NCBI GenBank assembly: GCA_019244055.1 | Contig: JAFATG010000101.1 | Location: 1-53,453 of the forward strand | Length of the DNA stretch: 53,453 bases | Reading direction: 5' to 3' | DNA from: Acidobacteriaceae bacterium | GTDB lineage: Bacteria > Acidobacteriota > Terriglobia > Bryobacterales > Bryobacteraceae | Notes under the pieces: generated by a model | What the model was told of the DNA's origin: nothing | Databases searched by the model: none | Seen by the model: the letters and a program-made list of their open reading frames with translations, nothing else | Translations under genes and position numbers: made by a program | In this document: positions 8,315 through 38,197 of the stretch, piece by piece | How positions within the stretch are numbered: position 1 is the stretch's first letter | How the letters are laid out: each line of letters begins with the position of its first letter

Positions 8315-8331
8315 ATTCGCGAATTCATATT

Positions 8332-18674: not shown

Positions 18675-18708
18675 CTGGTGCAAACTTGCCAATTCGATAG
18701 AGGGCAAC

Positions 18709-19842: not shown

Positions 19843-19860
19843 ATGAGACGAGAGCGCCCA

Positions 19861-20400: not shown

Positions 20401-20448
20401 CGCCCTCAAAGTCCACAGGCTGCCACCTGGGCATCTTTCCAGTAGCCG

Positions 20449-21019
20449 CGAGGTTACAATTGGGATTCAATGACCGAGCAAGTCTCGCCCGCGTCAGGTC
20501 TGCATGGCGTCGTAACTGTTCCCGGCGATGAATCCATTTCCCATCGCTACGCTATGCTCGCCTCGATCGCTCAGGGCGACTCCCGAATCTATAACTATTC
20601 GAGCGGCGCCGATTGCCATTCGACGCTATCGTGCATGCGAGCGCTCGGAATCCGGCACGAATTTGGCGACGAGGACGGCCACAAGGTCCTGACCATTCAC
20701 GGCAAAGGCAAAAATCATTTACAGCCGGCGGTGGCACCCCTTGATGCGGGAAACTCTGGCTCGACCATACGGATGCTTTCTGGCATTCTCGCCGGACAAC
20801 CGTTCACAAGCCAAATCGCCGGGGACGAATCTCTCGTAAAGCGCCCATGCGACGCATTATGCTTCCGCTCGCTGAGATGGGCGCGCACATCGAAGCGACA
20901 GACGGTCAGTTTCCGCCTTTGAAGATTCAAGGCTCCCGGCTTCACGGGATCGACTACACTCTCCCCGTCGCCAGCGCCCAGGTCAAAAGCTGTGTTCTGC
21001 TAGCCGGTCTCTTCGCTAA
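20449..21019 (+). repeat. Left copy of a ~570-bp direct repeat (aroA 5' region)
   Basis: The same stretch recurs at 36166-36737, same orientation, offset 15717 bases (15718 after a one-base deletion near 20844-20846). It begins 21 bases before the aroA ATG and ends at ...CTTCGCTAA, after which the two copies share nothing. By hand I count about 20 differences, roughly 3-4%. Before 20449 the two flanks are also unrelated. Confidence 0.92.
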
Positions 21020-21083
21020 CGCTTCTCGTAGGCCGAGCATTGAGCGAGTACTAGCACGCCACAACAGGTACTGGCGCCGGTAA
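20470..21083 (+). pseudogene. aroA: Truncated, frameshifted 5' fragment of aroA
   Basis: Codes for the first ~183 residues of EPSP synthase, nearly identical to the intact aroA at 36187. It is broken three ways. A single C is missing in the CCCC of the intact gene (near 20844), so the frame ends at 20922. The likeness continues in another frame from 20847 ([20 protein letters not shown]) and stops abruptly at 21019, with non-homologous sequence to a stop at 21083. The phosphoenolpyruvate/shikimate-site Lys of PGDKS is changed to Glu (PGDES). It cannot give an active enzyme. Its upstream flank is probably the ancestral aroA flank. Confidence 0.92.
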
Positions 21084-21169
21084 GTGAGATACCGTTTTAG
21101 TTCCCACCCCGGCGCTCGAGCATTTGCAGCAATGCAGAGTACGTGATAATGTAATGAGTTTCATCGCAC

Positions 21170-22741
21170 ATGGATGCTCCCGCAGCTCATTTTTGGTTCG
21201 CCCGTGTAGCAGGAAAAGTCATTGGCTGGCTTGCCACCGGCACCGTTCTAGGTTTCTTCTTGGTAGGTTGTCTTTGCAACTTCGCACAACAGGCGACTAC
21301 CTTATTCCAGTTTAACGAGATTGGTTACGGAGATAGTTATGTCCTTTACGATGTTTTACGTTTCCAGCGGACCGGAGAGATCTATCGCGATTTATCGCTA
21401 GCGCCTTACTTGCCCGCTCAGTACAGCCCCTTAATGTACATTATTTACTCGCTACCGGGCCGGTTCTATCGTTTCGTCAACCCCTTTGTAGGACCGCGTT
21501 TGGTAGCATTAGCGGCTTTCTTACTCTGCGCCGGGATGGCAGTTGCGATAGGCCACGCCCTAATTCAGGCTAGATACGCTTGGTGGTGGGGTGTAGCCTT
21601 GACTGGTTCGATCGGTGTGATGCGGGACTGGGTTTTGCAGGTCCGGGCCGATTTCCTAAGCATCGCGTTTGGCTTGCTCGCTGTTCGTCTGCTGTTAATT
21701 GAATCGAGTTGGGCGGTTCTACTGGCTGGCCTCTGTGCCGGTTTGGCGATACAGTTCAAGCTCACTTGCGTTGCCGCAGCAGTAAGTGGCACTTTATGGC
21801 TGCTCATTCGACGCCGCTGGCAGCAACTTGGAACATTCGTAATTGCCACCACGCTGACGTCAGTCGGACTGTATCTAGGGCTCTGGGCCTGGCAGCACCG
21901 CATGTTCGGAGAGCTTATGGCCATGAGCCCGGGTATCTATGAAGTACGCGGATACTTTAGAGTAGTCCTTAAGGCGATGAGTGAGCCAGTGGTACTACTT
22001 GCGGTCACGGCTGTCTCCGCCGTGTTCTCGAATCTTACTTCGCGCTGGGGGTTGCTGACTTTATATATCTCTGTGTCTTTTTCTGTAGCCGCGGTCACTG
22101 ATTTGCAAGCTGGCGGTAACACGAATTATTTCTACGAGTTTCTGTTCGCGCTTATTCCTGCAGCCGTACTCGGCGGCCACCGCTTGTTGACTGCAGCGAG
22201 ATCACGTATCGATGTCGGACTTATCGCCACCGCCCTGGTCGCATTTAATTTTCTGCCGGTGTTCATCCGGGACGACGCGAAACCCATTATCGAATCGGTT
22301 GTCCGACCGAACAGTGTTAGATCAAAGGATCAGAAGTTTCTGAGGGTGGCGGAAGTGCTTCAAGGTCGACACTTCCTTTCGTTTATACCGCGCCTGGCTT
22401 TGTTGGATCCTCAGCCGGCAATAACGGACGGTTTTCTCCTCACTTATCTTCATCGCATCGGCAAGTTCGATCCAAAACCTATCTTGGAAGGCATTGACCA
22501 ACACAAGTTCGACCTCATAGTGACGGCAACGAGTCCGGGGGAATGGCGAGGCATACCCCATCTGGACCCCGAACTCCGCGCCGCTATTAACGCCTCGTAC
22601 CAGCCGTACTGCATCTATTCTGAGTACCTGTTCCGCTTGCCACGCAGCCAATCCAGCCACAGCGCTCAAGCGCAGGAGCTCGGGAATCTTGGTTGCCGAC
22701 CCCTGTCTTGTGGGTTGGGATCTACTTGCCCATCTTGGTAA
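21170..22741 (+). CDS. Polytopic GT-C-type glycosyltransferase-like membrane protein
   Basis: 523 residues with about nine or ten hydrophobic helices between about 15 and 370 and a soluble C-terminal part (about 380-523). After the first helix a periplasmic loop carries GYGDSYVLYDVLRFQRTGEI and then AQYSPLMYII. An acidic residue in the first outer loop and a [YP]xP-like motif fit GT-C enzymes that use polyprenyl-phosphate sugars. The exact family (GT39/GT83/GT87-like) cannot be assigned. The GT2 gene starts 17 bp after its stop, and a dolichyl-P-sugar-type synthase plus a GT-C enzyme is a natural pair. The last ~25 residues look low-complexity. Confidence 0.7.
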   Translation: MDAPAAHFWFARVAGKVIGWLATGTVLGFFLVGCLCNFAQQATTLFQFNEIGYGDSYVLYDVLRFQRTGEIYRDLSLAPYLPAQYSPLMYIIYSLPGRFYRFVNPFVGPRLVALAAFLLCAGMAVAIGHALIQARYAWWWGVALTGSIGVMRDWVLQVRADFLSIAFGLLAVRLLLIESSWAVLLAGLCAGLAIQFKLTCVAAAVSGTLWLLIRRRWQQLGTFVIATTLTSVGLYLGLWAWQHRMFGELMAMSPGIYEVRGYFRVVLKAMSEPVVLLAVTAVSAVFSNLTSRWGLLTLYISVSFSVAAVTDLQAGGNTNYFYEFLFALIPAAVLGGHRLLTAARSRIDVGLIATALVAFNFLPVFIRDDAKPIIESVVRPNSVRSKDQKFLRVAEVLQGRHFLSFIPRLALLDPQPAITDGFLLTYLHRIGKFDPKPILEGIDQHKFDLIVTATSPGEWRGIPHLDPELRAAINASYQPYCIYSEYLFRLPRSQSSHSAQAQELGNLGCRPLSCGLGSTCPSW

Positions 22742-22758
22742 ACGATGCCTTCGCAGAT

Positions 22759-23535
22759 ATGAGCGATGCCCACCGGCAACTTGACGGGGAAGCGAGCCAA
22801 GCTCCCTTAGCCGTCTCAGTCGTCCTACCGGTAATGGATGAAACGGATTCACTGCGGCAAACCGTAGAGGTCTTATTGGCGGAGAACTCCAACGATATCT
22901 CGGAGATCTTAATAGTGGTGTGTGGTAAGACTACGCAGCCCTCAATGGCAGTTGCTGAAGGATTGCGCGCCCGTTGGCCTGACTTGATTAGGGTCCGGAG
23001 CCAGCAACGGCCTTTCTTGGGTGGGGCAATGCGCGACGCGTTCGAATGGTCATCCGGTTCACACGTCTTGATGATGGCGTCAGATCTGGAAACAGAACCG
23101 CGAAGCGCAAAGGACCTGATCGCCGCCGCGCGACGTAACATCGACATCGTCACAGCAACGCGCTGGTCTTCTCAAGATGGCTTCCAGGGCTACGATCCGC
23201 TGAAGTACACGTTAAATTGGATTTTCCAAATTCTGTTGCGACTGCTTTACCGCTCAAAGCTTTCCGATTTTACATTTGGCTTCCGCATCTTTCGTGCGCG
23301 CTGGGTTAAGGACGTCCAGTGGACCGAATTGCGCCATCCGTTTTTGCTCGAAACGATTCTGAAGCCGTTGCGACTGGGTGCACAGGTCATGGAGATCCCG
23401 ACAACTTGGAAGGCTCGCGTTGAAGGAGAATCGCACAATCCGTTTTCTCAGAATTTTGTTTATCTCCGAACAGCGCTGAAGATCCGATTCACGCCGAAAG
23501 AAAAGATGTTACGGAATAAGGGCCTTTCTTACTGA
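22759..23535 (+). CDS. GT2-family glycosyltransferase (polyprenyl-phosphate sugar synthase type)
   Basis: 258 residues with a GT-A fold. It opens VSVVLPVMDETDSLRQTVEVL (nucleotide-binding beta strand). SDLETEP around residue 95 stands where the DxD metal motif usually is, and NPFSQNFVYLRTALKIRF at the end resembles enzymes of the dolichol-phosphate mannose/glucose synthase type. I chose the ATG at 22759; a TTG at 22693 would overlap the preceding gene. It probably loads a sugar onto a polyprenyl phosphate for the GT-C protein encoded just upstream. Donor sugar unknown. Confidence 0.8.
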   Translation: MSDAHRQLDGEASQAPLAVSVVLPVMDETDSLRQTVEVLLAENSNDISEILIVVCGKTTQPSMAVAEGLRARWPDLIRVRSQQRPFLGGAMRDAFEWSSGSHVLMMASDLETEPRSAKDLIAAARRNIDIVTATRWSSQDGFQGYDPLKYTLNWIFQILLRLLYRSKLSDFTFGFRIFRARWVKDVQWTELRHPFLLETILKPLRLGAQVMEIPTTWKARVEGESHNPFSQNFVYLRTALKIRFTPKEKMLRNKGLSY

Positions 23536-23572
23536 AGCACTGAATCTGGCAAAGGCAGCACGTGCGTTCAGC

Positions 23573-24787
23573 TTAGGACTGGCCAGACTGAAACGAGCAA
23601 GGTCGCTCTTCCACGCTACGCGGAGATACTGCTGACACACGAGGTCTGTCGGACGAGGGAAGTCTTCGAAGGCCGTCCGAATTGCCGATTCTCTGCATAG
23701 TTGTGCTCCACATCCGCATTCCGCGAACGTACTCGAGCAGGAATTCCGCTTGGCTTTCGCCTAGGCCCGCGAGCCTTTTGATCTGTTCATCCAAAGCGTC
23801 AGCGAGTTCAACGTAGGCTGTAGCATAAGATTTCGCCGAAAACTCTGTGCTCCTCAGCATTCTCACGAACTCGTCCGTGAGGAGAACACCCATCCTTTCG
23901 TCATCTAAGTCTCTCCAAAGACTCTTCAAGGTTCGTTTTTGTAAGTGGTTCACAATTGGATGGCCGAAGGAAACTATATCGCCGAAGTGCTCGGCTAGCC
24001 TGTGGATAATGAAACTCCCCCAGATGTCGTCATAGCGGCCCGCCTGCGGATTCAAAAAGTAAGCTGGCAACAACTCCCGCGCTATAGTTGTCTGTTGAGA
24101 GTTAAAGGGCGCCCACGTGCCCGGCGAGAGGGTAAAATTCTCCTCTTGCGTCCACTGAACCGCTTCCAACGGCAGAGTCATACGCACCCAAGCGTCCACG
24201 TCCGGATCGCCCAGCCATAAGCCCACATTAGTAACAACTCTTCCGGTTTCGAGTGACTCTGTCACGCTCACGTGCGAATTGCCGCGTTCACTCATCGGGA
24301 ATCCCCGGTGAAAATAGCGGACATTCGGAGTAGCCGTGAGGAATTGACATGGGTTGAACCACCCCGTCGAGGTCCTGAACGATCGTAATGTCCTCTTCTC
24401 ACCTACGGCCAGATGATATTTAAGAAGGTCAGGCTCAAGCAGGTAGTTATCATCGTCCACCGTCAATACAGAGCTGACGCCAAGTTCATATGCTCGCACC
24501 ATGCCAATATTCCGGCGCTGTACGGAGTTATAAGGCAAATACGCGTCGAGCTCCGGGAACCCAGCGAGGTATGACCGCTGCTGAGTGACATCATAATATT
24601 CCACGGCGTACTCATATCGCTCTGCTAATCTCTCGCAGTAACTTTTGGCTTCATCGGGAGTTTTCTTGTCGCCGATGATGATGAAAATGACATCTGTGTG
24701 ATTATGTATCTTGAAGTCCTTGCAGTAATCTTCAAGGAAGTGCGGGACATTGATCGTCGTGGTTACAACCGCGATATTCGGCACCAA
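23573..24787 (-). CDS. RGP/UDP-arabinopyranose mutase-like (GT75) or STELLO-like protein
   Basis: 404 residues. Residues about 5-260 resemble plant reversibly glycosylated polypeptides: SVQRRNIGMVRAYELG (88-103), the acidic DDD at 111-113 followed by YLLEPDLL, FHRGFP (159-164), GLWLGDPDVDA (189-199; plant form GLWLNIPDYDA) and GRYDDIWGSF (250-259; plant form GRYDDMWAG). RGPs interconvert UDP-arabinopyranose and UDP-arabinofuranose and glycosylate themselves on an Arg. The RRNIG...DDDN run also recalls the eukaryotic STELLO/DUF288 proteins, so a glycosyltransferase role is possible. A helical C-terminal part of about 130 residues is added. Start is TTG 24787 or GTG 24784 after GGAGATG; the frame overlaps the epimerase gene by 25 bp. 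Confidence 0.7.
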   Translation of the reverse strand: MVPNIAVVTTTINVPHFLEDYCKDFKIHNHTDVIFIIIGDKKTPDEAKSYCERLAERYEYAVEYYDVTQQRSYLAGFPELDAYLPYNSVQRRNIGMVRAYELGVSSVLTVDDDNYLLEPDLLKYHLAVGEKRTLRSFRTSTGWFNPCQFLTATPNVRYFHRGFPMSERGNSHVSVTESLETGRVVTNVGLWLGDPDVDAWVRMTLPLEAVQWTQEENFTLSPGTWAPFNSQQTTIARELLPAYFLNPQAGRYDDIWGSFIIHRLAEHFGDIVSFGHPIVNHLQKRTLKSLWRDLDDERMGVLLTDEFVRMLRSTEFSAKSYATAYVELADALDEQIKRLAGLGESQAEFLLEYVRGMRMWSTTMQRIGNSDGLRRLPSSDRPRVSAVSPRSVEERPCSFQSGQS

Positions 24788-25845
24788 TTTTCATCTCCTG
24801 CTATTCTTTGACAAGCTGCGTCATAAACCTTGCTGAAACCGTCTCTTAGTGACGTAGAGGGCGACCATTTGAATCTCGTGCGAAGAACAGTCATATCGGC
24901 GTAGCGATTCTGCACGCCGACTGGCTTGTCCACGAGCGGCCGTATTTCCGGCGAATAACCCCCAATATCTGCGAATGTCCGGGCAACTTCTAAGAAGTTC
25001 GTCAGCACACCGGAACCAATGTTCACGCCCGAACCGTCGCCGATCGTTTCTAATGCGCGAAACAAGAAGTCTACGCAGTCGTCAATGTGCACGAAATCGC
25101 GCGCTTGCAGCCCGGTCCCCCAAACGATGATCGGATTCTCCTTCCTTGCGGCGCGCTCGGCAATCGCCGGGACGGGATAGACGGGTTCTTGGTCTTCTCC
25201 ATAGCCGGAAAACGGACGGATGCACGTGACGTGCAAACCGTAAGACTTTGCGGCGATGTGCGCGAGGTACTCGCCGGTTAATTTAGACCACCCGTAGGTC
25301 ATATCCGGCAACCCAAGGCTCTGGTTGAATTGGATGTAAGACTCCTTCAGAGGGACTGATCCGTCGGTTCCTTGCAGATCAATGGGATAAGCGGCGCTTG
25401 AGCTTGGATAGAGAATACGATCCGGCTTCACAACTCGAGCCCAGTGAAACATTTCAGCATCGATCGACAGGTCCGTCGCGACCAAAAGGGGATCGCCATC
25501 GATCAAAGCCCGTCCGCCTACGATAGACGCCAAGTGAATGACATCCCCAAACCGGGGAAGGTTTCGGATGAACGGGCTGTTAAGATACTCGGCGAAGAAT
25601 TTTCGGACGTCGTTCTTCACAAAGTACACGATTCTTCCACCATGCTCAAAAGCGGTACACGTTGATGAAAGCGTGGTGGGCGTGAAGCAGGTCGGCAGCC
25701 AAGTGGCCGGATCACGCCCGGTAAACAGGTCATCAACTAACCAAATTGAGTCCGTAAGATGGTTCTTCAGAACGTGCTTGGTCACATGCCTGCCTACAAA
25801 GCCACATCCGCCGCTGATCAACATTGGTTTTGTAGGAACCCTCAC
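24763..25845 (-). CDS. NAD-dependent sugar-nucleotide epimerase/dehydratase (extended SDR)
   Basis: 360 residues. Rossmann motif GGCGFVGRH near residue 12, an acidic residue for the NAD ribose in WLVDDLFTG, catalytic Ser/Thr region YPSSSAAYP, and the YxxxK pair in YGWSKLTGEY. The substrate half includes IRPFSGYGEDQEPVYPVP and ARDFVHIDDCVDFLF. This is the UDP-glucose 4-epimerase/UDP-sugar decarboxylase class; the exact reaction cannot be read from sequence. Its 3' end overlaps the RGP-like gene by 25 bp, so the two are co-translated and probably act on the same nucleotide sugar. Start GTG 25845, or ATG 25824. Confidence 0.85.
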   Translation of the reverse strand: MRVPTKPMLISGGCGFVGRHVTKHVLKNHLTDSIWLVDDLFTGRDPATWLPTCFTPTTLSSTCTAFEHGGRIVYFVKNDVRKFFAEYLNSPFIRNLPRFGDVIHLASIVGGRALIDGDPLLVATDLSIDAEMFHWARVVKPDRILYPSSSAAYPIDLQGTDGSVPLKESYIQFNQSLGLPDMTYGWSKLTGEYLAHIAAKSYGLHVTCIRPFSGYGEDQEPVYPVPAIAERAARKENPIIVWGTGLQARDFVHIDDCVDFLFRALETIGDGSGVNIGSGVLTNFLEVARTFADIGGYSPEIRPLVDKPVGVQNRYADMTVLRTRFKWSPSTSLRDGFSKVYDAACQRIAGDENWCRISRL

Positions 25846-26930
25846 TTATAAGCCTCTGCAATGAAAAGTGATTCGTCGAAACGGAATCGCGCCCCATTGA
25901 AGTCTCGCACAATATTGAATGATGCAGCCCGCATCCTGGCGAATACTCGTGGCCATGTGTACTAGAACTTCGAAAAGATCTTGTGCCAGCACAATTGATG
26001 AACTGCGGCGCTGTTAACTGTCCGTAACACTGAGACAGATTCGCTTTGGAGCGCGGTCATGATCGACATTCCCGGGTCCGAATTATCGTGGCAAGTTCAG
26101 TCTCAGCACGGACTCGAAATCGTTCACGTTAATCCCACTTGCTTTGATTAGCCGACTCTTGGAAGCATCACCTTGCCATCCTGCCCAAGGACTAGGGTGA
26201 CAACCTCCTCGATATGGATCCGGTGAATCACAAAACTGATCATCCGTACTAACACATAGGGTTACAGACATCATAAACGCGCCCCCCTGCGAAGTCCGTT
26301 GTGCACGCGAGGATTCCGAGCGCCGACAGATGTTCGAGAAAGCGTTTATGGCTCTGGGCCACAACCATGTACTGCAGCGGGCGGCCAGAATGGTTCGCAC
26401 CCGGCTTGCGCCATCCTTGGCAGGCGATCAAATAGTTCCTCCGGGAAGATCCTTCATGCCGTCCGCGATAACCTCGCCAATGGGCCGATTATCGGCAGCA
26501 GAACACGAAGGGATGCCGAGACATCTATACTCCTCCGTTAGGCGCTGCAGCCACCCGTCGATCGTCAGATTTTCATTCGCGGCTTGCGCCTACAACCCAG
26601 CGGTTTCCCCAGCAGCGGTTTATCCATCAGACATTGCTCGCACTGTCATTTCCAGCGCCTGGAGCCACTATAGTACTAAATAGCCCTTGCCGAAGTACCA
26701 GCTCCTCTTGTTTTCCGATAGAAATCAGTGCAAATAGGATGTATTAACGAGAAGGTACTAAGGAAATTTTGTCACATTGATGAAAAGTTCTGGAATTGGG
26801 GAACAATCATTAGCGTTCTTTAGCAACTCACTTGCCAAAGAAAGTTTCCCGGCGCATAAGCCGGTTTAGGCGTCGATTTTTGACCGGCGTCATGGGAAAG
26901 TCCCAGTACGGATCAGAAAGGAGCCCGCCC
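25846..26930. other. Non-coding or decayed stretch inside the island
   Basis: About 1.1 kb without a convincing gene. Several short frames exist on both strands (for example 26083-26400 reverse and 26330-26683 forward), but none resembles a family and they mutually overlap. One reverse-strand run near 26150-26240 reads IEEVVTLVLGQDGKVMLPRVG before a stop. It has protein-like composition and could be the tail of a decayed gene. The stretch separates a reverse operon from a forward gene, so promoters for both should lie here; I cannot point to a clear one. Confidence 0.5.
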
Positions 26931-28067
26931 GTGAGAAGAATAGCAGTGTGCCCAAACGGGCCGATTGCAAGACGTCCGAACGCGCGGTTCCTTCCCTGGC
27001 TTATTTCAGCCGCGGCCCTATTGGCTATGGCCCTACTAGGCAGGGTCCTCCTCGGCCAGCCGTCTCTCGTCACCCGATTCTGGTATGCGGTAAATGAGTC
27101 CGGAAACATCGGTAGTATCTCCGTTTATGACATGGATAATGGGCACACGCTGGTGAAAACGATCCAAACCGTTAGCGGAATTTCAGATCCTAGAGGTGTC
27201 GTTGCCAACGCGACGACTGGTAAGCTCTACGTTACTTACTCCCCAGGCCATGTCTTTTGTCTTGATCTTAAAACAGACAAGGTTCTTTGGGACCAAGGGT
27301 ATTCGCCAAATGTCGATCGATTGGCGATAAGCCCGGATGGCTCTACCTTGTACATCCCCACTAACGAAAATACGGCCGATGCGAACTACATCAGTATCGT
27401 CAATGCAGCCGACGGGAGCCTCGTCCGCACCGTAACGGTGGATTACCGTACGCACGACGCCCAGTATCCGTTATCGGGGCCGCTGTTCCAGGAGTGCAAG
27501 GCAAGTACGTGCAATTACCTTTATATGATCGATCCGCGATCGTATAACGTCACGAAATTCGGGCCGTTTCGGGGAATCTTGGCTCCCTACGTTGTGAATA
27601 GCGACAGCAGTTACGTCGCGGTCACCGAGGTCGATTGGTGGGGGATTCAGATTGGCAATCTGAAGACAGGAAAAATTTATACGGCCGTTCCCCCGAACGC
27701 TCCAGCAGAGGGTGAATCGCACGGGATCGGCATGCGGCCCGATGAACAAGAGGTTTGGCAGTCGGGGCCAAACCCAGACCCCCATGAATATGTGTGGAAC
27801 ATAAGCGATCCTAGAAATCCGAAACTGACGCACACGTTGTCCTTACCCTCTACGACGCATTGGATGACTTTTTCGATTGCCGGAGACTATGCCTACATAG
27901 CACCCGGGAAACTCAGCAGCGTGCCTACCCAGGTGTATAACACCGCAACCTACAAAGTAGCGGCGACTATCGGTGCCAGCGAAGATATGTTGGAGGTCGA
28001 CATCGACACGTTCAACCGAGAAGTTACTGCGGTCGGCGATCAGTACGGCATTGGCCGAAGGCGATGA
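26931..28067 (+). CDS. Membrane-anchored YVTN/WD40-like beta-propeller protein
   Basis: 378 residues from a GTG start supported by AGAAAGGAG at about 26915-26923; the frame is open further upstream without any feature. An N-terminal helix (FLPWLISAAALLAMALLGRVLL) serves as signal or anchor. The rest is a propeller of YVTN type: FWYAVNESGNIGSISVYDMD, GKLYVTYSPGHVFCLDLKTDKVLW, LAISPDGSTLYIPTNE, YAYIAPGKLSSVPTQVYNTATY. The function is probably ligand or protein binding at the cell surface; no catalytic motif is seen. It stands alone on the forward strand within the island. Confidence 0.75.
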   Translation: MRRIAVCPNGPIARRPNARFLPWLISAAALLAMALLGRVLLGQPSLVTRFWYAVNESGNIGSISVYDMDNGHTLVKTIQTVSGISDPRGVVANATTGKLYVTYSPGHVFCLDLKTDKVLWDQGYSPNVDRLAISPDGSTLYIPTNENTADANYISIVNAADGSLVRTVTVDYRTHDAQYPLSGPLFQECKASTCNYLYMIDPRSYNVTKFGPFRGILAPYVVNSDSSYVAVTEVDWWGIQIGNLKTGKIYTAVPPNAPAEGESHGIGMRPDEQEVWQSGPNPDPHEYVWNISDPRNPKLTHTLSLPSTTHWMTFSIAGDYAYIAPGKLSSVPTQVYNTATYKVAATIGASEDMLEVDIDTFNREVTAVGDQYGIGRRR

Positions 28068-28353
28068 ATCCGGCTAATCCTGATATCGATGACAAACCGG
28101 CGGCATAGATATACTTTACAGCCGGGCCCGACCCAAAACTCAGAGGCTGTTTGGCTCTGACGAACTGATCAAAGGAGGTGGACACTAATTAGCAACAGCC
28201 TTTAGTAAGAGGCGGTGAACACAATGAGGACGAGAGCAAATCCGATCGCTCCCTCCAGTGCGAGTTCACCGCCCTTTACGTGACGGCAACGGACTCTTTC
28301 CTAGATGTACCGGGGACTTTCGAGTTCGGTTCGTGTCCATTGTTTGAATGGAT

Positions 28354-30369
28354 TCAGTAAATCAGCCACGCCTGGTTGCTGTTTCCACTCGCAGTCCAAA
28401 GCTGCATACCCGTACCAGGCTTCAAACTAAAACCAGAGTCATCTATCACCAAGCCGCTGGCCCTATTGTGGATCACATATCCCGAGCCCGATGCCGTAAG
28501 CCACCACAACTGCGCATCGGAGTGGGCCGCAGTAAGTTGCTCAAGTTTGGCGCCATTCGTCTTCGAACCCCCCGGATCGCCCAGATACAATCCACTTGAA
28601 GCGTTGCGGATGGTGTAATACCCGCTGCCGTTTGCCACGAAAGCCCATTTCTGATTGGCGCCGCCGTTAGGCGTCGACTCAACAATTTGTGTACCGGATG
28701 ATGCATCGGGACCGTCCAGCACGAGCGTGCTCAGCTGCCCTGTGATCGTGTACTCTCCATTTGGAAGTGGCCGCACAGGTAAGAGGCCGAACACAACTAC
28801 GCTGTTTGTGGTGCCCACAAAAAGCTGACCGTTGGCTATTGTGGGTGCAATGAACTTGTCCCCTGCCCCGAAATGGTCGCGGCCTGAAGGGGCTTGTCCG
28901 CTGTTGTAGAATTCTGTCCGCAAATCGATAACATCGTAAGCGTGCAGCACCGCCGGGTTTGTATTCTCGACAGCCCAGAGTATGCCGTTCGAGGAGCCCG
29001 ATGCAGACACGGAAGGCGTCACCCCTGGATACGGGAAGGCATGTATCGTTGCTGATGCTGGCTCCAGCTTCGCGTCGGCAATGCTGAAGGCCTGCAATGC
29101 GCCACTAACTGGCCCAAAGTAAACGTGATGGTCAAAATAAGCCGGACTGCTGAAGATCCCTCCAGGCAGTGCGCCTGTCAACTGCTGATAGATTGTCCCG
29201 TCCCTGGTCGCGTCGTATCTTCCCATGTTGTCCCGATCGACCATGTAGAGATTCCAATCCTTGCCCGCACCGACAGCGAGATGGCGTATCGTCCCGCGCG
29301 CGTCCGTTTCGTCGGGGAGCAGCATGATCCCGCCTGAGCCCAGGTCGATATCGTTGCCCGACTCGCTATCCGAGTTATACATGGTCCAGTAATCGGTCGC
29401 ATTTAGCTCGCCGTTTTGAACCGTAAGTTTCACGAAAGCGTTGCCGTAATCGCCGGCTTTAGGAAAGCCTTTGCCGTTCAGTGCCGTATCAAACGTGCCA
29501 TTGGCAACGGCTGCAAAGATATTTCCGTGTGAATCGGCTGCAGGTCCGGCGCCAGAGTTCCAAAGCGCGCCCTCGCGACCGTTTGGAGCGAAATTGAACA
29601 CGCTGGTCTGCCTCAGGCTCAATCGATCGTAACCGATGATCCAACCGGTGTAGGGATCAATATCACAGTGCGATCCCCAGCTTGTATATACCACTCCGTT
29701 TAATAACAGGAGCGCGGCGCGGTCCTTATACTGCTTGGGGTCGAAGATCACTCGGCCATTGCTGCTGTTTTCCCCGCTTCCAGGGTAAGAGGCATTAATC
29801 GTAACCGGCCCGCCAAACTCCTCAGCACCCGTGGTAATGTCCAGCGCGTGCAATCGCTGATAATAGTTCCCGCGGCTGTCCTTACTCATCGCTACGACAT
29901 AGATGGTCCCATGAGAACCGGCGGCCAAATCGATAACCGGAGTCGAAGTGATACCGATTTCGGGAACAACCTGACCGCAGTTTCGCGAGTCGGATGTCAT
30001 CTCTCCCGTTTTGAGCAAAGAAACGTGCCAGAAAACAGATCCGCTGTTTGCGTCGAAGGCGTAGACGCTGTCGTGTTCCGTCGCCGCAAATACGACGTTG
30101 TGCCCACCACGATTGGGCATGCTCAGCCCCGTCACATAAAGCGGCTGGGCATCTACCTTGCCATCGACGAGCACATTTAAGAGCCTGCCGAAAGTCTTTG
30201 GATTGACACGAGCCGGGGTCAAGATTGTCTCCGATACATTCTGACCGGTACGGGCGTTGTCATTGTGCCATGTCAGGACATTTGTCTGGCCGAATGCCGC
30301 CTCATGGTAACCTGCAGCGGTCAGCATGGCGCAAAACGGGAACAAAACCTTCGAGCAGGACCGAATCAT
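28354..30369 (-). CDS. Secreted PQQ-like beta-propeller protein with C-terminal ricin-B lectin domain
   Basis: About 671 residues from the ATG at 30369, preceded by AAGGGAG. Signal peptide through EAAFGQ. Residues about 30-540 form a PQQ-dehydrogenase-type propeller (VVFAATEHDSVYAFDANSG, IGITSTPVIDLAAG, LHALDITTGAEEFGGP, APTIANGQLFVGTTNSVVVFG). Residues about 550-671 are a ricin-type beta-trefoil with QxW-like repeats (NQKWAFVANGSGYYTIRN, SDAQLWWLTASGSGYVIHN, GNSNQAWLIY), a sugar-binding module. PQQ binding is not proven; many such propellers lack the cofactor. The propeller is paralogous to that of the gene at 32385-35930, which carries a different tail. Confidence 0.85.
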   Translation of the reverse strand: MIRSCSKVLFPFCAMLTAAGYHEAAFGQTNVLTWHNDNARTGQNVSETILTPARVNPKTFGRLLNVLVDGKVDAQPLYVTGLSMPNRGGHNVVFAATEHDSVYAFDANSGSVFWHVSLLKTGEMTSDSRNCGQVVPEIGITSTPVIDLAAGSHGTIYVVAMSKDSRGNYYQRLHALDITTGAEEFGGPVTINASYPGSGENSSNGRVIFDPKQYKDRAALLLLNGVVYTSWGSHCDIDPYTGWIIGYDRLSLRQTSVFNFAPNGREGALWNSGAGPAADSHGNIFAAVANGTFDTALNGKGFPKAGDYGNAFVKLTVQNGELNATDYWTMYNSDSESGNDIDLGSGGIMLLPDETDARGTIRHLAVGAGKDWNLYMVDRDNMGRYDATRDGTIYQQLTGALPGGIFSSPAYFDHHVYFGPVSGALQAFSIADAKLEPASATIHAFPYPGVTPSVSASGSSNGILWAVENTNPAVLHAYDVIDLRTEFYNSGQAPSGRDHFGAGDKFIAPTIANGQLFVGTTNSVVVFGLLPVRPLPNGEYTITGQLSTLVLDGPDASSGTQIVESTPNGGANQKWAFVANGSGYYTIRNASSGLYLGDPGGSKTNGAKLEQLTAAHSDAQLWWLTASGSGYVIHNRASGLVIDDSGFSLKPGTGMQLWTASGNSNQAWLIY

Positions 30370-30564
30370 TGTGTCTCCCTTCAAGATGTCCTTTTAAGCG
30401 TGCACTTAAGGACTTCAGAGCGTACTACAGGACGAGTTTATAGCGAAGCGGCCTCGCGCCAGTCGCCAACACGAGGCCCGTGAAAACGGATTTCCGCAAA
30501 GACCACAGAACGGAATCGTGCCATCATTCGTGGAGTGCACTAGGTTCAGGTGCTCCGACTGCGC

Positions 30565-32268
30565 TTAGTCCCCCAATAAAATCTGAGTGTCGCCATTTGG
30601 TAAATAGCTGGTGAATTGAATCAGCCTCTGCTTCAAATGAGGAGCCTCGGCCGGGTCGACCGCGTAGAAGCTAACCGTATCGTCTGCCACGAAAACAGCG
30701 TGCTGTGTCTTCCATTCCGCGACGCGACGCCAGGTTGCAGGCAGCTTTGGGCTCAAAAATCCATTGTAGATTTTTCCCTGGAACCACGAATCGTATACAA
30801 TTGCAAGTTTCGTGTTTTCGGCCCTTGCAAGCTGATCGATGGCACGCGTGTCAAACTTGCCAGCGCGCTTCAATCGGCATATTTCACGGTTGGCAAGCCC
30901 ATACAGGTCTAGGCAACGGATGCCGGTAAAGAAGCTGACTGCGCCGATATCATTTGCCGCCAACGAGGTGTCGTTATAGTAAGTCGCGAGAAAACGAGCC
31001 ATCTGATATTGCTGTCGAAAGAGGCTACGTGTGGCTCCATAATATTGAACCGCCGTTTGGAAGCCGTGGAGAAGCAAAGGAAACAACAACAATATGACAG
31101 CGATAGTCCATGGCAGCCACTCCAAAATGTTTGATTTATTAACGAGTTTTGCCCGGATTGGTTGGAATAAGGCCGACAAATCCGCGCAGCCAATGCTCAC
31201 GACGGACATGGCAAGTAGATAGCCCTCATACCTTCCCAACCCGCCCGTAAGTGCATACTGCAGATGCAGGAACATGGTGATAAACGTAATGCAGATCATT
31301 ACTTGACCTCGATTCCAAACGGAGACACCACGCGCACTTCGCCACAAGTAGATGGCCACCAGTGCTACCACCGCAGCTACCAGATGAGGCGTCGTAAACA
31401 GCTGTAGCAGCGCAGTGTAACCGACCGCGTTCGCCAATGATTTCATCGAAGAAATCTGGGGCATGCGGCCCTTCAATAGCAACGATGTGGGAAGCCAAAA
31501 CCAACCCTTAGAGACAGAATACAGTCCCAAAATCGCCATCGGCGCTAAAGCTGCAACTAACACCATCGCGGTTTGTAAGAGTCGGCGACGCAACAAGAGG
31601 AGGAAAACGATCCCGGCAACCAGAAAGAGAGTCTCGAAACGAACCAGCACCGCGGCAGCGATGGTAATGGTCAGTGTGAACTGCAGCCATGGTTGGGTTC
31701 TTGGCTCGGCAATCAACGTCGCACCCCAGAACATCAGGAGTATGGAGAGAAGTACGTGAAGCCCATGTTCCATGCCGCTCGTGGGCAAAACCGGCAAGGG
31801 AACGAATAAGTAGAGGGCTGTTACCGTAAGAATCACCGTCAGTCGTGAGGCTCCTGAGCGGAGCAGGATCTCGCAGGCGACATATGCCAAAACCAGTCCG
31901 AAAAGGATGTTAAGTACGAGCGGTGCCCACGTCTGTACGCCGGCGCTTGCATAGAACGCCGAAATCAAGAACACCCATAGTGGAGACGATGAACAGGCAG
32001 TAAAACCCTCTTGGGTCAAACCGAAAATCCCATGTGCAGCAAGATTCTTTGCGAGCGCCATGTGAATATAAGCGTCGTCAAGAGCGTAAACAAAGGTCCC
32101 CGTCTGACGGACATTGATCCACATTAAAAGCGCGCAAAGCAGAATGTAAAGGGGAATCAAGATGACGAGACAAACGTAACGCGACTTCGCCAAGCTCACT
32201 TCTGGTTCATCTTTATCGGCCTCCATTTCAGCAGAAATCTGCCGAGAGTTCGGATTCTTAAAGGACAT
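30565..32268 (-). CDS. Polytopic GT-C-type glycosyltransferase-like membrane protein
   Basis: 567 residues: a cytosolic, charged N-terminus (1-30), then about ten to twelve helices to about residue 430, then a periplasmic domain. The first outer loop has ALDDAYIHMALAKNLAAHG, the Asp-Asp motif of ArnT/PMT/GT39-like enzymes using polyprenyl-phosphate sugars, followed by GFTACSSSPLWVFL. The soluble part has DIGAVSFFTGIRCLDLYGLANREI, a stretch I associate with actinobacterial arabinosyl/mannosyl-type GT-C proteins. The acceptor is unknown. It lies between the two PQQ-like propeller genes on the same strand, perhaps acting on the same surface glycan. Confidence 0.75.
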   Translation of the reverse strand: MSFKNPNSRQISAEMEADKDEPEVSLAKSRYVCLVILIPLYILLCALLMWINVRQTGTFVYALDDAYIHMALAKNLAAHGIFGLTQEGFTACSSSPLWVFLISAFYASAGVQTWAPLVLNILFGLVLAYVACEILLRSGASRLTVILTVTALYLFVPLPVLPTSGMEHGLHVLLSILLMFWGATLIAEPRTQPWLQFTLTITIAAAVLVRFETLFLVAGIVFLLLLRRRLLQTAMVLVAALAPMAILGLYSVSKGWFWLPTSLLLKGRMPQISSMKSLANAVGYTALLQLFTTPHLVAAVVALVAIYLWRSARGVSVWNRGQVMICITFITMFLHLQYALTGGLGRYEGYLLAMSVVSIGCADLSALFQPIRAKLVNKSNILEWLPWTIAVILLLFPLLLHGFQTAVQYYGATRSLFRQQYQMARFLATYYNDTSLAANDIGAVSFFTGIRCLDLYGLANREICRLKRAGKFDTRAIDQLARAENTKLAIVYDSWFQGKIYNGFLSPKLPATWRRVAEWKTQHAVFVADDTVSFYAVDPAEAPHLKQRLIQFTSYLPNGDTQILLGD

Positions 32269-32384
32269 AAATATTTAGCCAAAACAATATCACTATGCAG
32301 CATTGTGTCGTGAAGCTTTGAGAATTACGACCAGGCGCCGAGTCAGGGAAAGCTTCCGAGAGCTTGCAGTAACTGTCGAAGGCC

Positions 32385-35300
32385 TTAGTGGGACACCTCG
32401 CCGCCAATGCTATAGAAGGTACCGGGATTGCTTTGGTTGTTAAACTCGGTACTAATCCAGTCCGCGGACCGCGTGACTGAAGAGATTCTGACTTCGTCTA
32501 TCGTGCCTACAAAACCTTCTTGCGCATATTCGGTGTCGTAGCCGATTCCTAACGGACGGCTGGTTGTGCCTATCGAGATCGAGGCTGAGGCAGTTGCGAT
32601 CTGAGTTCCATTAGCGTACAAACGCACGTTCGAACCATCATAGGTACCTACGACGTATGTCCAGACGCCGGCAGTTAACGTACCTCCGTTTGTGCCCACT
32701 GCGGATTTTGCAGCCCCTGTGCTAAGTTGAAAACTCACTTCCTGCGAGTTTCCGGTACGGTACAAACCATAAACCGTGTAAGGATCGGCGTTATTAGCAA
32801 CCGCCTTCGCAACAATCCTCGCATAGGAAGTTTGGGTGTTCGCCGCCGGATTGATCCAGGCCGACAGGGTTATGCCAGTTCCGGTGATATCCAAAGAGCT
32901 GGCGTCGGGCACGCTGATACCGGCGGAGTTCTGCGCGCCGAATGAGCTCGCCCCATCGATTTCTCCAAGTGTCGCCTTGGCTGAATTGAGGCTGCTGGCA
33001 TTGTTAGCGTGTGCAGTCGAATCGTTCGCCGTCAGGGTCGTACCGTTCGGCAGGTGCCAGACACCTCCGTAGTTGCTGTCCCAGACCCCGGTCTTGTTTT
33101 CCTGGCTGCTGGTGATGCTGGAGTTGCCGTAGAACAGGTAGATCACCGTGTCAGTGGTGTGCGACACCGTGGGAACCTGCACCCAGGCGATGAACTGGCC
33201 GGTAGAGCCGTTGTACGACTCGATCTCGTGGTTGAGTTTCTGCGTTCCGGCCGCATCAGAAGTAAAGATGATATCGTAGCCATTGGCATTGGTAACGTGT
33301 CCGCCATGGCTCGTAGTCTTGAGCAGCGCATCGGTGCTGTTGAACAGCATGGGGAAGTTAGTCCGATCACTGTTAGGTACTCGCGCATGCGCGATCGTAA
33401 TAGTACGCGAATAGCTATACTTATTGTTGCTTGTGTTGCTGCTGCTCAGTGCCGCTGCGACCAACGTCACATTGCCCGTGCCAGAACCCATCACCCAAGT
33501 CACGGTAAAGGTCTGACTCGCACTGGCAGCCTGATAGGTTAGAGTGTAATTGCGATCGTACAGGCCACTGGTATTCGATGTGGTGTCGGTGAAATCCGGC
33601 GCCGAGCCGTCTGACAGATGCGCCGTCAGGCTACCCCCGCTGGACGATCCGCCGACGTGCACTATCAGTGTCCGGTTGGTGGTATCGGCTGGTGCGGTAA
33701 TGGAAAAACCGTGCCCCGTGCCGCCTATGGACACTCCTTTCCGGTCGTCTGTCATGGCCGCCGTGGGAGTACCATCGTTCCAGTTCATAGGACGCGGGTC
33801 GTTCGTGTAGATCGTCGGACTGCCGCCGCCCACTACCGTATACGTGGACACTTGCGCCGTCACGCCCGACTTGCGGTTCAAGCTGCTGTCCCCCCAATGG
33901 ACCCAGTCGCTCGTGCCTTCCGCGGACAGATTTATTGCGGTCGCAGAATTATCACCACCCCCGACCAATATCCCCTTGCCAACATCCAACGTTACGAAGG
34001 CTTGTTTTGATGAAACCCCTGTGCCTTGCCCCGTGATCTTTAACTGATAACTTCCACTCGGAGTCGTGGCGCCGGCCGTCACTGTCAATGTGGAGTTCCC
34101 CGAATTGAGCGAACCAGGCGTGAAATTGGCTGTCGCGCCTGTCGGTAATCCAGTGACTCTGAGCGAAACGGAGCCGGTGAACTTTCCTCTTGGAAGAACG
34201 GAGACGGTAAACGTCGTTTTTGATCCTTTCGAAACCTGAGCATAAACGGGTGACGGCGACAACGCAAAGCTCGGTGGCAGCAACCCGTATACTGCAACCT
34301 GGTTTGAAAACGTCGCCATATAAACCTTCCCGTTGGCCACGGTCGGCGGTACGAATTTTGCGAAATAACCGAAATCGTCTCCCGGAACCTGCCTGCTGTT
34401 CCAAAGTTCGGTGGCAACATTCGATGCATCAAAAGCGTGGAGTATTCCGGGCTGCGTCCATCCTTCCGCACTGCCAGAGTACGGCGTATTTGCCCACAGG
34501 ATTCCGGTACCCGCTGCATCCCCGTTCGCCGAGATCGAAAGAAACCCGCCTGGCATGCAACCGCGCTCGAAATTATTCGGGTCTAGGCACTCCAATGGGC
34601 CAGTGGCAGGAGCAAAAACGGCGCTCGTTGAGGTGGGCGTCGTCTGGAAAGAACTGCCGTTGAACAGGAAGGCCATGAGGCGATCTGCTTCGGCCCACAA
34701 GTAGATGTGCTGACCGGCCGGGCCATTCCAATAGACTTCGCCAGAATGAATATGGAGGTCATATCCGTTAACCGGTGTTGTGGCCTGAAACTCCTGAACG
34801 ACCTGATCTTTGCTCGAATTGAACTTGCCCATATTCGTCGTATCCAACAGATATAGGACGCCTTCCTTTCCACCGCCGATCAGATACTTCGTGCCGGGAA
34901 TGGCCATTGGGCCCGAGGCGCCGAGATCGACATCCTGACTGCTCAGCGACGACTCATTGGACGGCGCGAAGTAGTCCAATAAGCTTAGCCCGGATGCGGT
35001 ACCGAGCTTGACGAAACTCATGCTGAAGTTCGTCTTCCCGTCAAATGTTCCATTTCCAGACATCAGGTAAATGTTGCCATTCGCGTCGGCAACGGGTCCT
35101 TCGCCTGATTGCCAGATGCCTCCTTCAGCGCCGTTTGGCGTATCGCACCAGACGCCGACTTGCTGCAGTGAGGATGCATTGTATGAGAACACCCAGCCAT
35201 GGTATGGTGCGTCGTCGCTATAGGACGCCGAGGCGACAATAATTAGACCGTGGGTCAAGGCTAGTGCAGGGCGGAGGCGCTGCCTGACGGGATTGTACGT

Positions 35301-35930
35301 TACCGTTGTCCCTCCGTCTCCAGTCCCTGCAACCGTCGCAGTGATCTTAACTGGCCCGTTAAACTTTTCGGCGCCAGATGTGATATCAATTGCGTGCAGA
35401 TAATGCTGCTGCTGGTTCGATACGACCGCGACGTTCACAACGTACATGGTGTTCGTAGAAGCATCGATGACGGGCGTCGCAGTAATACCAATCAGCGGGA
35501 ACATGTTGTACCAGGGCTCGAGAGTATTGGTACAGTTCTCCCATGAGAGATCCGGGACCACGTTTGGGCCACAGTTCACTGGGGTGCCCAGATTTATCTG
35601 CCACAGCGGTGAGGCGCCGGGCGTTTCAGCATCAAGCGCATAAATCGTATTGTTCTCGGTAGCCACGTACAGCACGTTGTGCGTCGCCCCCTTGATCGTC
35701 ACATTGGACATGTAGAGGGGCTGGGCGTAGACCTGTGCGTCGACGGGAATCGTGAATAGCAATCCGAAAAGAGACGGATTTACATTACTTGTGTTTAGCG
35801 TCGTCTCATTAAGATTCGCGCCAGTACGGTTATTGTCGTTATGGTGAGTCGGGACGTTTACTTGCGAAAAACACAAAGCGATGCCCACACATGAAAGTAT
35901 TAGTGCCTTTGGGCACATCCTCCGATTCAT
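32385..35930 (-). CDS. Large secreted PQQ-like propeller protein with Ig-like, DUF2341 and LamG domains
   Basis: 1181 residues. Signal peptide at about 1-22. A propeller at about 30-555, paralogous to the 28354 gene (HHNDNNRTGANLNETTL ... VNPSLFG; VLYVATENNTIYALDAETPG; IGITATPVIDASTNTMYVV). An Ig-like stretch at about 560-660 (FTGSVSLRVTGLPTGATANF). About 670-850 is beta-rich with no clear family. DUF2341 at about 855-955 (NFPMLFNSTDALLKT, YDIIFTSDAAGTQKLNHEIE, IYLFYGN). A LamG/concanavalin-like lectin domain at about 990-1181 (ITLSAWINPAANTQTSYARIV, WTYVVGTYDGSNVRLYANG, GTIDEVRISSVTRSADWI). Likely an extracellular carbohydrate-binding protein. It is the first reverse-strand gene in from the right island junction. 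Confidence 0.87.
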   Translation of the reverse strand: MNRRMCPKALILSCVGIALCFSQVNVPTHHNDNNRTGANLNETTLNTSNVNPSLFGLLFTIPVDAQVYAQPLYMSNVTIKGATHNVLYVATENNTIYALDAETPGASPLWQINLGTPVNCGPNVVPDLSWENCTNTLEPWYNMFPLIGITATPVIDASTNTMYVVNVAVVSNQQQHYLHAIDITSGAEKFNGPVKITATVAGTGDGGTTVTYNPVRQRLRPALALTHGLIIVASASYSDDAPYHGWVFSYNASSLQQVGVWCDTPNGAEGGIWQSGEGPVADANGNIYLMSGNGTFDGKTNFSMSFVKLGTASGLSLLDYFAPSNESSLSSQDVDLGASGPMAIPGTKYLIGGGKEGVLYLLDTTNMGKFNSSKDQVVQEFQATTPVNGYDLHIHSGEVYWNGPAGQHIYLWAEADRLMAFLFNGSSFQTTPTSTSAVFAPATGPLECLDPNNFERGCMPGGFLSISANGDAAGTGILWANTPYSGSAEGWTQPGILHAFDASNVATELWNSRQVPGDDFGYFAKFVPPTVANGKVYMATFSNQVAVYGLLPPSFALSPSPVYAQVSKGSKTTFTVSVLPRGKFTGSVSLRVTGLPTGATANFTPGSLNSGNSTLTVTAGATTPSGSYQLKITGQGTGVSSKQAFVTLDVGKGILVGGGDNSATAINLSAEGTSDWVHWGDSSLNRKSGVTAQVSTYTVVGGGSPTIYTNDPRPMNWNDGTPTAAMTDDRKGVSIGGTGHGFSITAPADTTNRTLIVHVGGSSSGGSLTAHLSDGSAPDFTDTTSNTSGLYDRNYTLTYQAASASQTFTVTWVMGSGTGNVTLVAAALSSSNTSNNKYSYSRTITIAHARVPNSDRTNFPMLFNSTDALLKTTSHGGHVTNANGYDIIFTSDAAGTQKLNHEIESYNGSTGQFIAWVQVPTVSHTTDTVIYLFYGNSSITSSQENKTGVWDSNYGGVWHLPNGTTLTANDSTAHANNASSLNSAKATLGEIDGASSFGAQNSAGISVPDASSLDITGTGITLSAWINPAANTQTSYARIVAKAVANNADPYTVYGLYRTGNSQEVSFQLSTGAAKSAVGTNGGTLTAGVWTYVVGTYDGSNVRLYANGTQIATASASISIGTTSRPLGIGYDTEYAQEGFVGTIDEVRISSVTRSADWISTEFNNQSNPGTFYSIGGEVSH

Positions 35931-36064
35931 TGTCGAATTATAGGGCTAAAAATCTGCGAATCATTACGGATCGCGGCGCGTATGAGTACTGGTACCGTGC
36001 GATCATTTTTCAGTCAAAACGAACTCTTTCGGCGGGACTCAACCACGACGTCGAAATAGTTTCA

Positions 36065-36073
36065 TGATAAAAT
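36065..36073 (+). promoter_or_regulatory. Candidate extended -10 promoter for intact aroA
   Basis: TGATAAAAT: a TGn extension plus TAAAAT (five of six matches to TATAAT), about 110 bp before the aroA ATG. No good -35 is present, as expected for extended -10 promoters. It lies in island DNA, before the repeat begins at 36166, so the working aroA would be driven by sequence that arrived with the island. Confidence 0.3.
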
Positions 36074-36165
36074 CTCCATTCATTCCGGAAGCAAACTGCG
36101 GGGTCGGGGTTTGAGGCGGCAAACCGCGATGAGCTATACACCTGGACCAACTGGAATAGTTACAC

Positions 36166-36737
36166 CGAGGTTACAATTGGGATTCAATGACCGAGCAAGT
36201 CTCGCCCGCGTCAGGTCTGCATGGCGTGGTAACTGTTCCCGGCGATAAATCCATTTCCCATCGGTACGCCATGCTCGCCTCGATCGCTCAGGGCGACTCC
36301 CGAATCTATAACTATTCCAGCGGGGCCGATTGCCATTCGACGCTATCGTGCATGCGAGCGCTCGGAATCTGGCACGAATTTGGCGACGAGGACGGCCGCA
36401 AGGTCCTGACCATTCACGGCAAAGGCAAAAATCATTTAGAGCCGGCGGTGGCACCCCTTGATGCGGGAAACTCTGGCTCGACCATACGGATGCTTGCTGG
36501 CATTCTCGCCGGACAACGGTTCACAAGCCAAATCGCCGGGGACGAATCTCTCGCAAAGCGCCCCATGCGCCGTATTATGCTTCCGCTGGCCGAGATGGGT
36601 GCGCACATCGAAGCGACGGACGGTCAGTTTCCGCCTTTGAAGATTCAAGGCTCCCAGCTTCACGGGATCGACTACACTCTCCCCGTCGCCAGCGCCCAGG
36701 TCAAAAGCTGTGTTCTGCTAGCCGGTCTCTTCGCTAA
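36166..36737 (+). repeat. Right copy of the ~570-bp direct repeat (aroA 5' region)
   Basis: Partner of 20449-21019, same orientation. It starts 21 bases before the aroA ATG and covers about the first 183 codons. The homology ends at ...CTTCGCTAA, inside the gene, while this copy continues as normal aroA. It keeps the intact frame and the PGDKS lysine, unlike the left copy. Confidence 0.92.
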
Positions 36738-38125: not shown

Positions 38126-38197
38126 TGCTCTTCCAAAATCTGCGCTGTTTTTCGAGGCTGTACACGTCTATCTCTCTTTGCGAGGTCTCCTCACATA

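What the first reader, a model, noticed from the sequence alone, without database searches (positions are those of the whole stretch)
20449..36737. Accessory island bracketed by a broken and an intact copy of the aroA 5' end
The two ~570-bp direct repeats start at the same point (21 bp before the aroA ATG) and end at the same codon, with unrelated DNA on all other sides. The left copy is truncated and frameshifted; the right copy reads through into full aroA. One crossover between the chromosome and a circle carrying the aroA 5' end would leave this pattern, as would a site-specific element that supplies a new 5' end of its target gene. About 3-4% divergence between copies means it is neither a very recent duplication nor a simple assembly artefact. 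Use of an essential gene's 5' end, rather than a tRNA or a gene 3' end, is unusual.
Basis: partly seen in the sequence, partly recalled or inferred. Interest (0 to 1): 0.8.

Follow-up and report, generated by a model that had tools for sequence, protein, structure and literature searches.

The report
Island beside duplicated aroA gene start
A soil bacterium carries about 22 kb of extra genes just in front of an essential gene, and one stretch of them is flanked by a decayed and a working copy of that gene's start; this looks like an ordinary one-off insertion or local duplication, not a new kind of mobile element.

Summary
Window 20449-21019 and 36166-36737 match at 552 of 572 positions with one gap, and both ends are sharp. 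The left copy is a frameshifted aroA fragment; the right copy opens the intact gene. Four congeners have an empty site: the divergent asparaginase-family gene (window 12792-13949) sits 36-68 bp from aroA by match ends, with no fragment and no island.

The site-specific reading finds little support. Pfam shows no integrase, only a sub-threshold serine-recombinase remnant outside the repeats. None of 14 congeners with aroA repeats the pattern. Of 243 aroA-bearing genomes in the order, one other has a clear aroA 5' fragment (a tandem duplication) and one is doubtful. Spaced local direct repeats occur in this genome and its relatives.

Best reading: a one-off recombination inserted the 15.1-kb, GC-poor segment and duplicated the aroA promoter and first 551 bp, so the gene survived. 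Single-crossover integration and local template switching leave the same structure. Low interest.

The parts
12792..13949 (-). Asparaginase-family gene; in 4 congeners the immediate divergent neighbour of aroA
   Evidence: Pfam Asparaginase_2 E 4.1e-61; synteny
13950..20448 (.). Left accessory segment, absent from the empty site of 4 congeners; GC 56.7%, like the left flank
14100..17291 (-). Protein kinase fused to tannase/feruloyl-esterase domain
   Evidence: Pfam Pkinase E 1.1e-47, Tannase E 4.1e-124
17416..17997 (-). ECF sigma factor
   Evidence: Pfam Sigma70_ECF E 4.4e-59
18162..19842 (+). Two ORFs (170 and 400 aa) without a Pfam family
19865..20473 (+). ORF with a decayed serine-recombinase (resolvase) remnant, running into the left aroA fragment
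   Evidence: Pfam Resolvase E 7.8e-4, 20 bits, below the Pfam cut-off of 23.3; no relative at E<=1e-8 in the 60 other genomes of a 61-genome family sample
20449..21019 (+). Left repeat copy: aroA promoter core plus first 550 bp, frameshifted, truncated
21020..36165 (.). Accessory segment between the repeats, 15.1 kb, GC 53.3%
   Evidence: in 17 genus genomes the best match outside this place is 1.76 kb at 66%, in the lectin gene
21170..22741 (+). 523-aa protein, no Pfam family
22693..23535 (+). Family 2 glycosyltransferase
   Evidence: Pfam E 7.7e-15
23573..24787 (-). Reversibly-glycosylated-polypeptide-like protein
   Evidence: Pfam RGP E 2.3e-6
24763..25845 (-). NAD-dependent sugar epimerase/dehydratase
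   Evidence: Pfam Epimerase E 9e-30
26832..28067 (+). 411-aa protein, only weak beta-propeller hits
28354..30384 (-). PQQ-propeller plus ricin-B lectin protein
   Evidence: Pfam RicinB_lectin_2 E 6e-39
30565..32268 (-). 567-aa protein, no Pfam family
32385..35930 (-). 1181-aa protein with Laminin_G_3 and DUF2341 domains
   Evidence: Pfam E 5.3e-25 and 5.4e-9
36166..36737 (+). Right repeat copy: aroA promoter core and first 551 bp
36187..37479 (+). Intact aroA (EPSP synthase, 430 aa)
   Evidence: Pfam E 2.9e-105; 64-74% identical to 14 congeners
37487..40627 (+). HATPase gene and GH57/DUF3536 gene, the conserved downstream neighbours of aroA
   Evidence: same order in 12 of 12 congener loci fetched

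Best explanation
A one-off, non-site-specific insertion. Shown: in four congeners the order is asparaginase gene, short divergent promoter region, aroA; the window has 22.2 kb in between; the 15.1-kb inner part is flanked by direct copies of the aroA promoter core plus first 551 bp. Inferred: DNA carrying (or copying) the aroA 5' end recombined with the chromosomal aroA, by single crossover of a circle or by homology on one side and illegitimate joining on the other. That left the old 5' end stranded to the left and rebuilt a complete aroA on the right, with a -10-like box 15 bp before the ATG. The stranded fragment then decayed. The cargo (glycan and lectin-type proteins) has no visible part in the event.
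For: Sharp-ended direct repeats around the segment. Empty site in 4 congeners. Inner segment GC below all 64 sampled 15-kb windows. Left copy frameshifted and missing a lysine kept in 14 of 14 congeners; right copy intact. Divergence of 3.5% against 28% or more to the congeners, so the copies come from the same species or a very close strain. A -10-like hexamer lies 15-17 bp before aroA in 14 of 14 congeners (TACAA found by script in 11; TACACT or TAAAAT read by eye in 3), so the duplicated piece includes the conserved promoter core. No integrase was found with Pfam within the repeats.
Against: No donor molecule, circle or strain with this segment was found in the searches made: 17 genus genomes and the plasmid collection with the left junction only. 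Both copies carry derived changes (left 5 substitutions and 1 indel, right 6, ambiguous 8), so a self-copy that decayed on one side only does not fit simply. Spaced local direct repeats also arise elsewhere in these genomes, which favours a local duplication route as well. No sigma-70-type two-hexamer promoter was found before the intact aroA. Reads were not available.
Confidence: 0.5

Rival explanations
1. Local duplication by template switching or illegitimate recombination within the genome: replication copied the aroA 5' end, jumped to other DNA, then returned to the aroA promoter. No incoming DNA with aroA homology is needed.
For: Same final structure. Spaced direct repeats of gene parts occur in the background: a slipin-type gene 3' end on both sides of a kinase-type gene in the same genome, a gene-end duplicate beside a PIN-type toxin gene upstream of aroA in G007, and a sulfatase plus aroA 5' tandem duplication in G028.
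Against: The inner segment is compositionally distinct, and its best match elsewhere in this genome is about 0.5 kb at 68%, in the genus 1.76 kb at 66%, so it was not copied from a sequence still present in the assembly at high identity; outside DNA is likely involved at some point.
Confidence: 0.28
2. Site-specific integrative element that targets the aroA 5' end and supplies a new promoter and 5' end, comparable to elements that sit in the 5' end of prfC.
For: Direct repeats at both ends; restored reading frame; the start point coincides with the edge of the conserved promoter core; a decayed serine-recombinase remnant abuts the left copy.
Against: No integrase was found with Pfam inside the repeats (not every small ORF was tested, and PHROGs and NCBIfam were not run); the remnant lies outside them. 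572-bp repeats are far longer than usual att sites (recalled). None of 14 congeners with aroA has the pattern. Of 243 aroA-bearing genomes in the order only G028 has another clear aroA 5' fragment, by tandem duplication, and G116 a possible one at a contig end.
Confidence: 0.08
3. Assembly or binning artefact in a 372-contig draft genome with 3.8% estimated contamination.
For: Draft quality; repeats with 3.5% divergence are a plausible place for misjoins (recalled).
Against: Left and right flanks both carry genes that lie near aroA in congeners. The junctions 20448/20449 and 21019/21020 are not explained by collapse of the repeats (inference). The left copy carries its own frameshift.
Confidence: 0.1

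Closest known systems
Homology-facilitated illegitimate recombination (foreign DNA joined by homology at one end and illegitimately at the other)
   Same: One homologous anchor, one unrelated joint, DNA gained (PMC3240628, start of abstract in a search listing; proposed for V. cholerae effector arrays with a displaced ancestral gene, PMC5361080, passages)
   Different: No donor or competence evidence here; mechanism inferred from structure only
Transformation-induced merodiploids in Streptococcus pneumoniae
   Same: An essential gene is kept intact while a second, altered copy remains (PMC3784515, abstract and outline)
   Different: Those are about 100-900 kb tandem duplications with intact and inactivated copies; here only 572 bp are duplicated
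SXT/R391 ICEs in the 5' end of prfC
   Same: Integration at the 5' end of a conserved gene (PMC2791158, passages)
   Different: Those carry a defining tyrosine integrase and nearly identical attP/attB; none seen here
recA mobile element of Vibrio cholerae
   Same: Island that interrupts an essential-type gene while a working copy is present (PMC4405046, passages)
   Different: Carries its own whole divergent recA, an integrase and 9-bp inverted repeats, and excises as a circle
Tandem duplication of sulfatase plus aroA 5' end in G028
   Same: An aroA 5' fragment about 2.5 kb upstream of intact aroA
   Different: Homology continues into the upstream sulfatase-type gene (2522 bp at 89%), so it is a plain tandem duplication

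Membership tests
Site-specific integrative element (ICE/IME/genomic island with integrase) | Integrase or site-specific recombinase gene inside the element | tested here: not met
   No integrase family among the 8 large proteins between the repeats nor in the two gap ORFs tested there, Pfam only; a sub-threshold resolvase remnant lies outside the repeats
Site-specific integrative element (ICE/IME/genomic island with integrase) | Direct repeats (att) at both ends | tested here: inconclusive
   Direct repeats of 572 bp exist; no shorter core was recognised in the repeat listing, and no dedicated search was made
Site-specific integrative element (ICE/IME/genomic island with integrase) | Same site occupied in other genomes | tested here: not met
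   0 of 16 other genus genomes show an aroA fragment; 14 of the 16 have an aroA match, and in G009 and G013 the contig ends within about 155 bp upstream. In the order 1 clear other case (tandem duplication) and 1 doubtful case among 243 genomes with aroA
Insertion relative to an empty site | Relatives with the flanking genes adjacent and no island | tested here: met
   G006, G010, G012, G014: asparaginase gene 36-68 bp from aroA by tblastn match ends
Homology-facilitated illegitimate recombination | One homologous and one non-homologous joint | tested here: inconclusive
   Structure compatible; donor sequence unknown
Homology-facilitated illegitimate recombination | Event observed after DNA uptake | not testable with these tools
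   Needs a cultured strain
Simple tandem duplication | Homology continues upstream of the duplicated gene part | tested here: not met
   No similarity left of 20449/36166, unlike G028

The most novel reading that the evidence does not exclude
A class of elements without their own integrase uses the edge of the aroA promoter core as a fixed joint: each arriving DNA brings a promoter plus 5' coding segment, takes over aroA and strands the old 5' end. The two segments upstream of the two copies (ending at 20448 and 36165) would then be successive arrivals at the same point.
Probability: 0.05. Interest if true: 0.6.

Novelty: new member of a known kind. Interest (0 to 1): 0.2.

Why it matters
It is a readable example of how accessory DNA can enter next to an essential gene without killing the cell, and it shows that a broken gene copy beside an island need not mean a site-specific element. 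A survey of empty sites and of background local repeats is needed before such a structure is called a new integration system.

Tried and rejected
Rejected: chance similarity; degraded continuation of homology past the repeat ends; plain tandem duplication, because homology stops at -21; aroA upstream as a hotspot of integrase-borne islands, because the upstream ORFs of the 6 congeners looked at without an adjacent asparaginase gene look mostly like ordinary genes, prfB-like in two of them (read by eye and recall, no Pfam run).

Led nowhere: plasmid collection search for the left junction, no match; genome-contig scan for named relatives, 11 loci of which one, L053 (Bryobacteraceae MAG), has the contig length of G014's contig; sigma-70 scan before aroA, nothing. 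Literature: (with aroA as a term) listed one paper, on Deferribacter, not about such an island; (ICEs at prfC, islands in housekeeping genes, Acidobacteria, partial duplications) did not use aroA as a term, and no title or abstract start listed speaks of aroA. These cover the held library only. PMC3174227 (passages) describes small-scale duplications and mobile-element rearrangements in the related Solibacter; it has no case like this in the passages seen. (polarising the differences) was wrong because minus-strand loci were not turned; it is discarded and replaced.

Limits and dropped rows: only up to 6 candidates per genome were scored and the match table was cut by the tool, so I relied on its per-genome match counts and re-queried the nine other genomes with more than one match. 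Of those nine, G151 has two full copies; G052 and G118 are split between two contigs; in G022 two pieces lie in one locus; in G056, G058 and G060 the aroA match is split into two pieces and a distant paralog is also present; G116 is doubtful; G028 is real. Fragments weaker than E 1e-15 would be missed there.

Full report
Observation. Two direct copies of the aroA 5' end lie at 20449-21019 and 36166-36737: 552 of 572 positions identical with one gap. Both start 21 bp before the ATG and end 551 bp into the gene. Similarity stops abruptly at both ends: ungapped identity of the adjoining 150 bases is 24% on either side, and local alignments of the flanks are no better than shuffled sequence. The right copy opens an intact 430-aa EPSP synthase. 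The left copy has lost a base at codon 125 and the lysine at codon 21 that all 14 compared congeners keep. A DNA search of the genome found no third copy.

Host. The window is contig 357 of a 6.2-Mb, 372-contig genome, 96.7% complete. The contig of its congener G014 has the length of a record titled Bryobacteraceae bacterium that matched the same query at the same identity, so the host is an acidobacterium of that family by inference.

Empty site. In G006, G010, G012 and G014 the asparaginase-family gene (window 12792-13949) lies divergently 36 to 68 bp from the aroA start, measured from tblastn match ends, followed downstream by the same HATPase and GH57 genes. Outside the genus G018 and G023 also have this gene near aroA, at about 475 and 906 bp. 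In the window 22.2 kb separate the two. The extra DNA therefore consists of a left part (13950-20448), the aroA fragment, and the inner segment (21020-36165). The asparaginase gene was found in 6 of 17 genus genomes at E <= 1e-60; apart from the window it adjoins aroA in 4 of 5, and in G011 it lies about 418 kb away on the same contig. In the 6 congeners without the adjacent gene that were looked at, mostly ordinary-looking genes stand upstream of aroA (by eye), so the upstream side of aroA varies in this genus without a mobile element being evident.

Content. The inner segment encodes a family 2 glycosyltransferase, an RGP-like protein, a sugar epimerase, a PQQ/ricin-lectin protein, a 1181-aa laminin-G/DUF2341 protein and three proteins without a clear Pfam family. 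Its GC is 53.3%, against 56.7% for the left part and left flank, 57.3% for the right flank, and a minimum of 54.7% among 64 overlapping 15-kb windows in 60 sampled stretches (826 kb) of the genome (N counted as non-GC there, which makes the comparison conservative). In 17 genus genomes its best DNA match outside this place is 1.76 kb at 66%, in the lectin gene, and in the own genome about 0.5 kb at 68%. In the seven relative loci examined, single proteins match in different places; in one, G005:C951, a glycosyltransferase match and a partial epimerase match lie side by side, so pairs of these genes do occur together elsewhere, but no larger block was seen. The left part holds a kinase-tannase fusion, an ECF sigma factor, two unassigned ORFs and a decayed resolvase remnant whose Pfam score is below the curated cut-off; its best match elsewhere in the genus is about 1.2 kb at 65%.

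Promoter edge. A -10-like hexamer lies 15 to 17 bp before the ATG in all 14 congeners compared (TACAA by script in 11; TACACT in G009 and TAAAAT in G002 and G003 by eye), and in both window copies at 15 bp. Both repeats begin just upstream of it. A two-hexamer sigma-70 scan found nothing there, so the promoter reading rests on conservation alone. This would explain why a viable rearrangement must keep about this much, though not why the breakpoint is exactly at -21.

Age and polarity. Of 19 substitutions in the coding part 11 are synonymous and 8 not. Judged against 14 congeners, 5 (plus the deletion) are derived on the left, 6 on the right and 8 are undecided. Random mutation, with transitions weighted fourfold, would give about 71% non-synonymous changes; 8 of 19 or fewer has probability 0.008 under that. 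This suggests that at least one lineage was under selection, as expected for one live and one dead copy or for two strain alleles, which cannot be separated here. The congeners differ by 28% or more in this stretch, so donor and recipient were the same or a very close strain.

Is it a recurrent system? None of the 16 other genus genomes shows an aroA fragment; 14 of them have an aroA match, and in G009 and G013 the contig ends within about 155 bp upstream of it. In the order 243 of 257 genomes have matches at E <= 1e-15, and ten have more than one. On re-query of the nine others only G028 has a clear 5' fragment, with G116 doubtful at a contig end. In G028 homology runs on through the neighbouring sulfatase-type gene (2522 bp, 89%), a plain tandem duplication. 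Fragments below the E-value limit, or beyond the six candidates scored per genome, would be missed.

Background of local repeats. Direct repeats of at least 150 bp and 75% identity spaced 1 kb or more were counted in stretches of at most 20 kb. G000 has 2 in 826 kb besides aroA: a slipin-type gene 3' end around a kinase-type gene, and an HU-type gene duplicate. G011 has 0 in 200 kb, G006 1 in 200 kb and G217 2 in 200 kb; G027 has one in L216 plus a cluster within L215, in 200 kb. Among 19 relative loci (287 kb) G007 and G028 show one each. The aroA pair is therefore not exceptional as a repeat; pairs spaced nearly 20 kb are under-counted by the stretch length, and only one of the G000 pairs (slipin) is a gene part rather than a near-whole gene.

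Mechanism. The structure (target part, insert, same target part) follows from single-crossover integration of DNA carrying the aroA 5' end, from homology-facilitated illegitimate recombination, or from template switching during replication. Homology-facilitated illegitimate recombination and transformation-made merodiploids are in the literature; single-crossover integration is textbook knowledge (recalled). I give integration of incoming DNA 0.5, local duplication 0.28, artefact 0.1 and a site-specific element 0.08. The last lacks an integrase, recurrence and a recognised short att core. Survivorship could account for the choice of an essential gene: only events that leave one intact aroA are seen.

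Verdict. Real feature, correctly described, extended to 22.2 kb here. Most likely an ordinary outcome of recombination; interest 0.2.

Noticed in passing
L135 (G000:C220) 377-718 and 4100-4440: Slipin/SPFH-type gene 3' end (name by eye) duplicated at 86% on both sides of a 962-aa kinase-type gene; the longer copy is frameshifted.
   Followed up: partly
L034 (G007:C580) 7505-7782 and 8927-9205: Gene-end duplicate (95%) upstream of aroA in a congener, with a PIN-type toxin gene and a likely antitoxin between the copies (names by eye).
   Followed up: partly
L033 (G028) 5808-8329 and 8356-10874: Tandem duplication of a sulfatase-type gene and the aroA 5' end at 89%.
   Followed up: yes
L179 (G000:C250) 6768-7113 and 14838-15185: HU-type gene duplicated 8 kb apart at 78.5%, second copy frameshifted.
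   Followed up: partly
window 28354-30384 and 32385-35930: The two large lectin-type proteins of the island match the same stretches in five congeners (first about 550 residues), so they look like neighbouring paralogs.
   Followed up: no
G151:C196 and G151:C90: Two full-length aroA copies on different contigs of one genome; duplication or contamination.
   Followed up: no
window 14100-17291: Protein kinase fused to a tannase/feruloyl-esterase domain in one 1063-aa protein.
   Followed up: no
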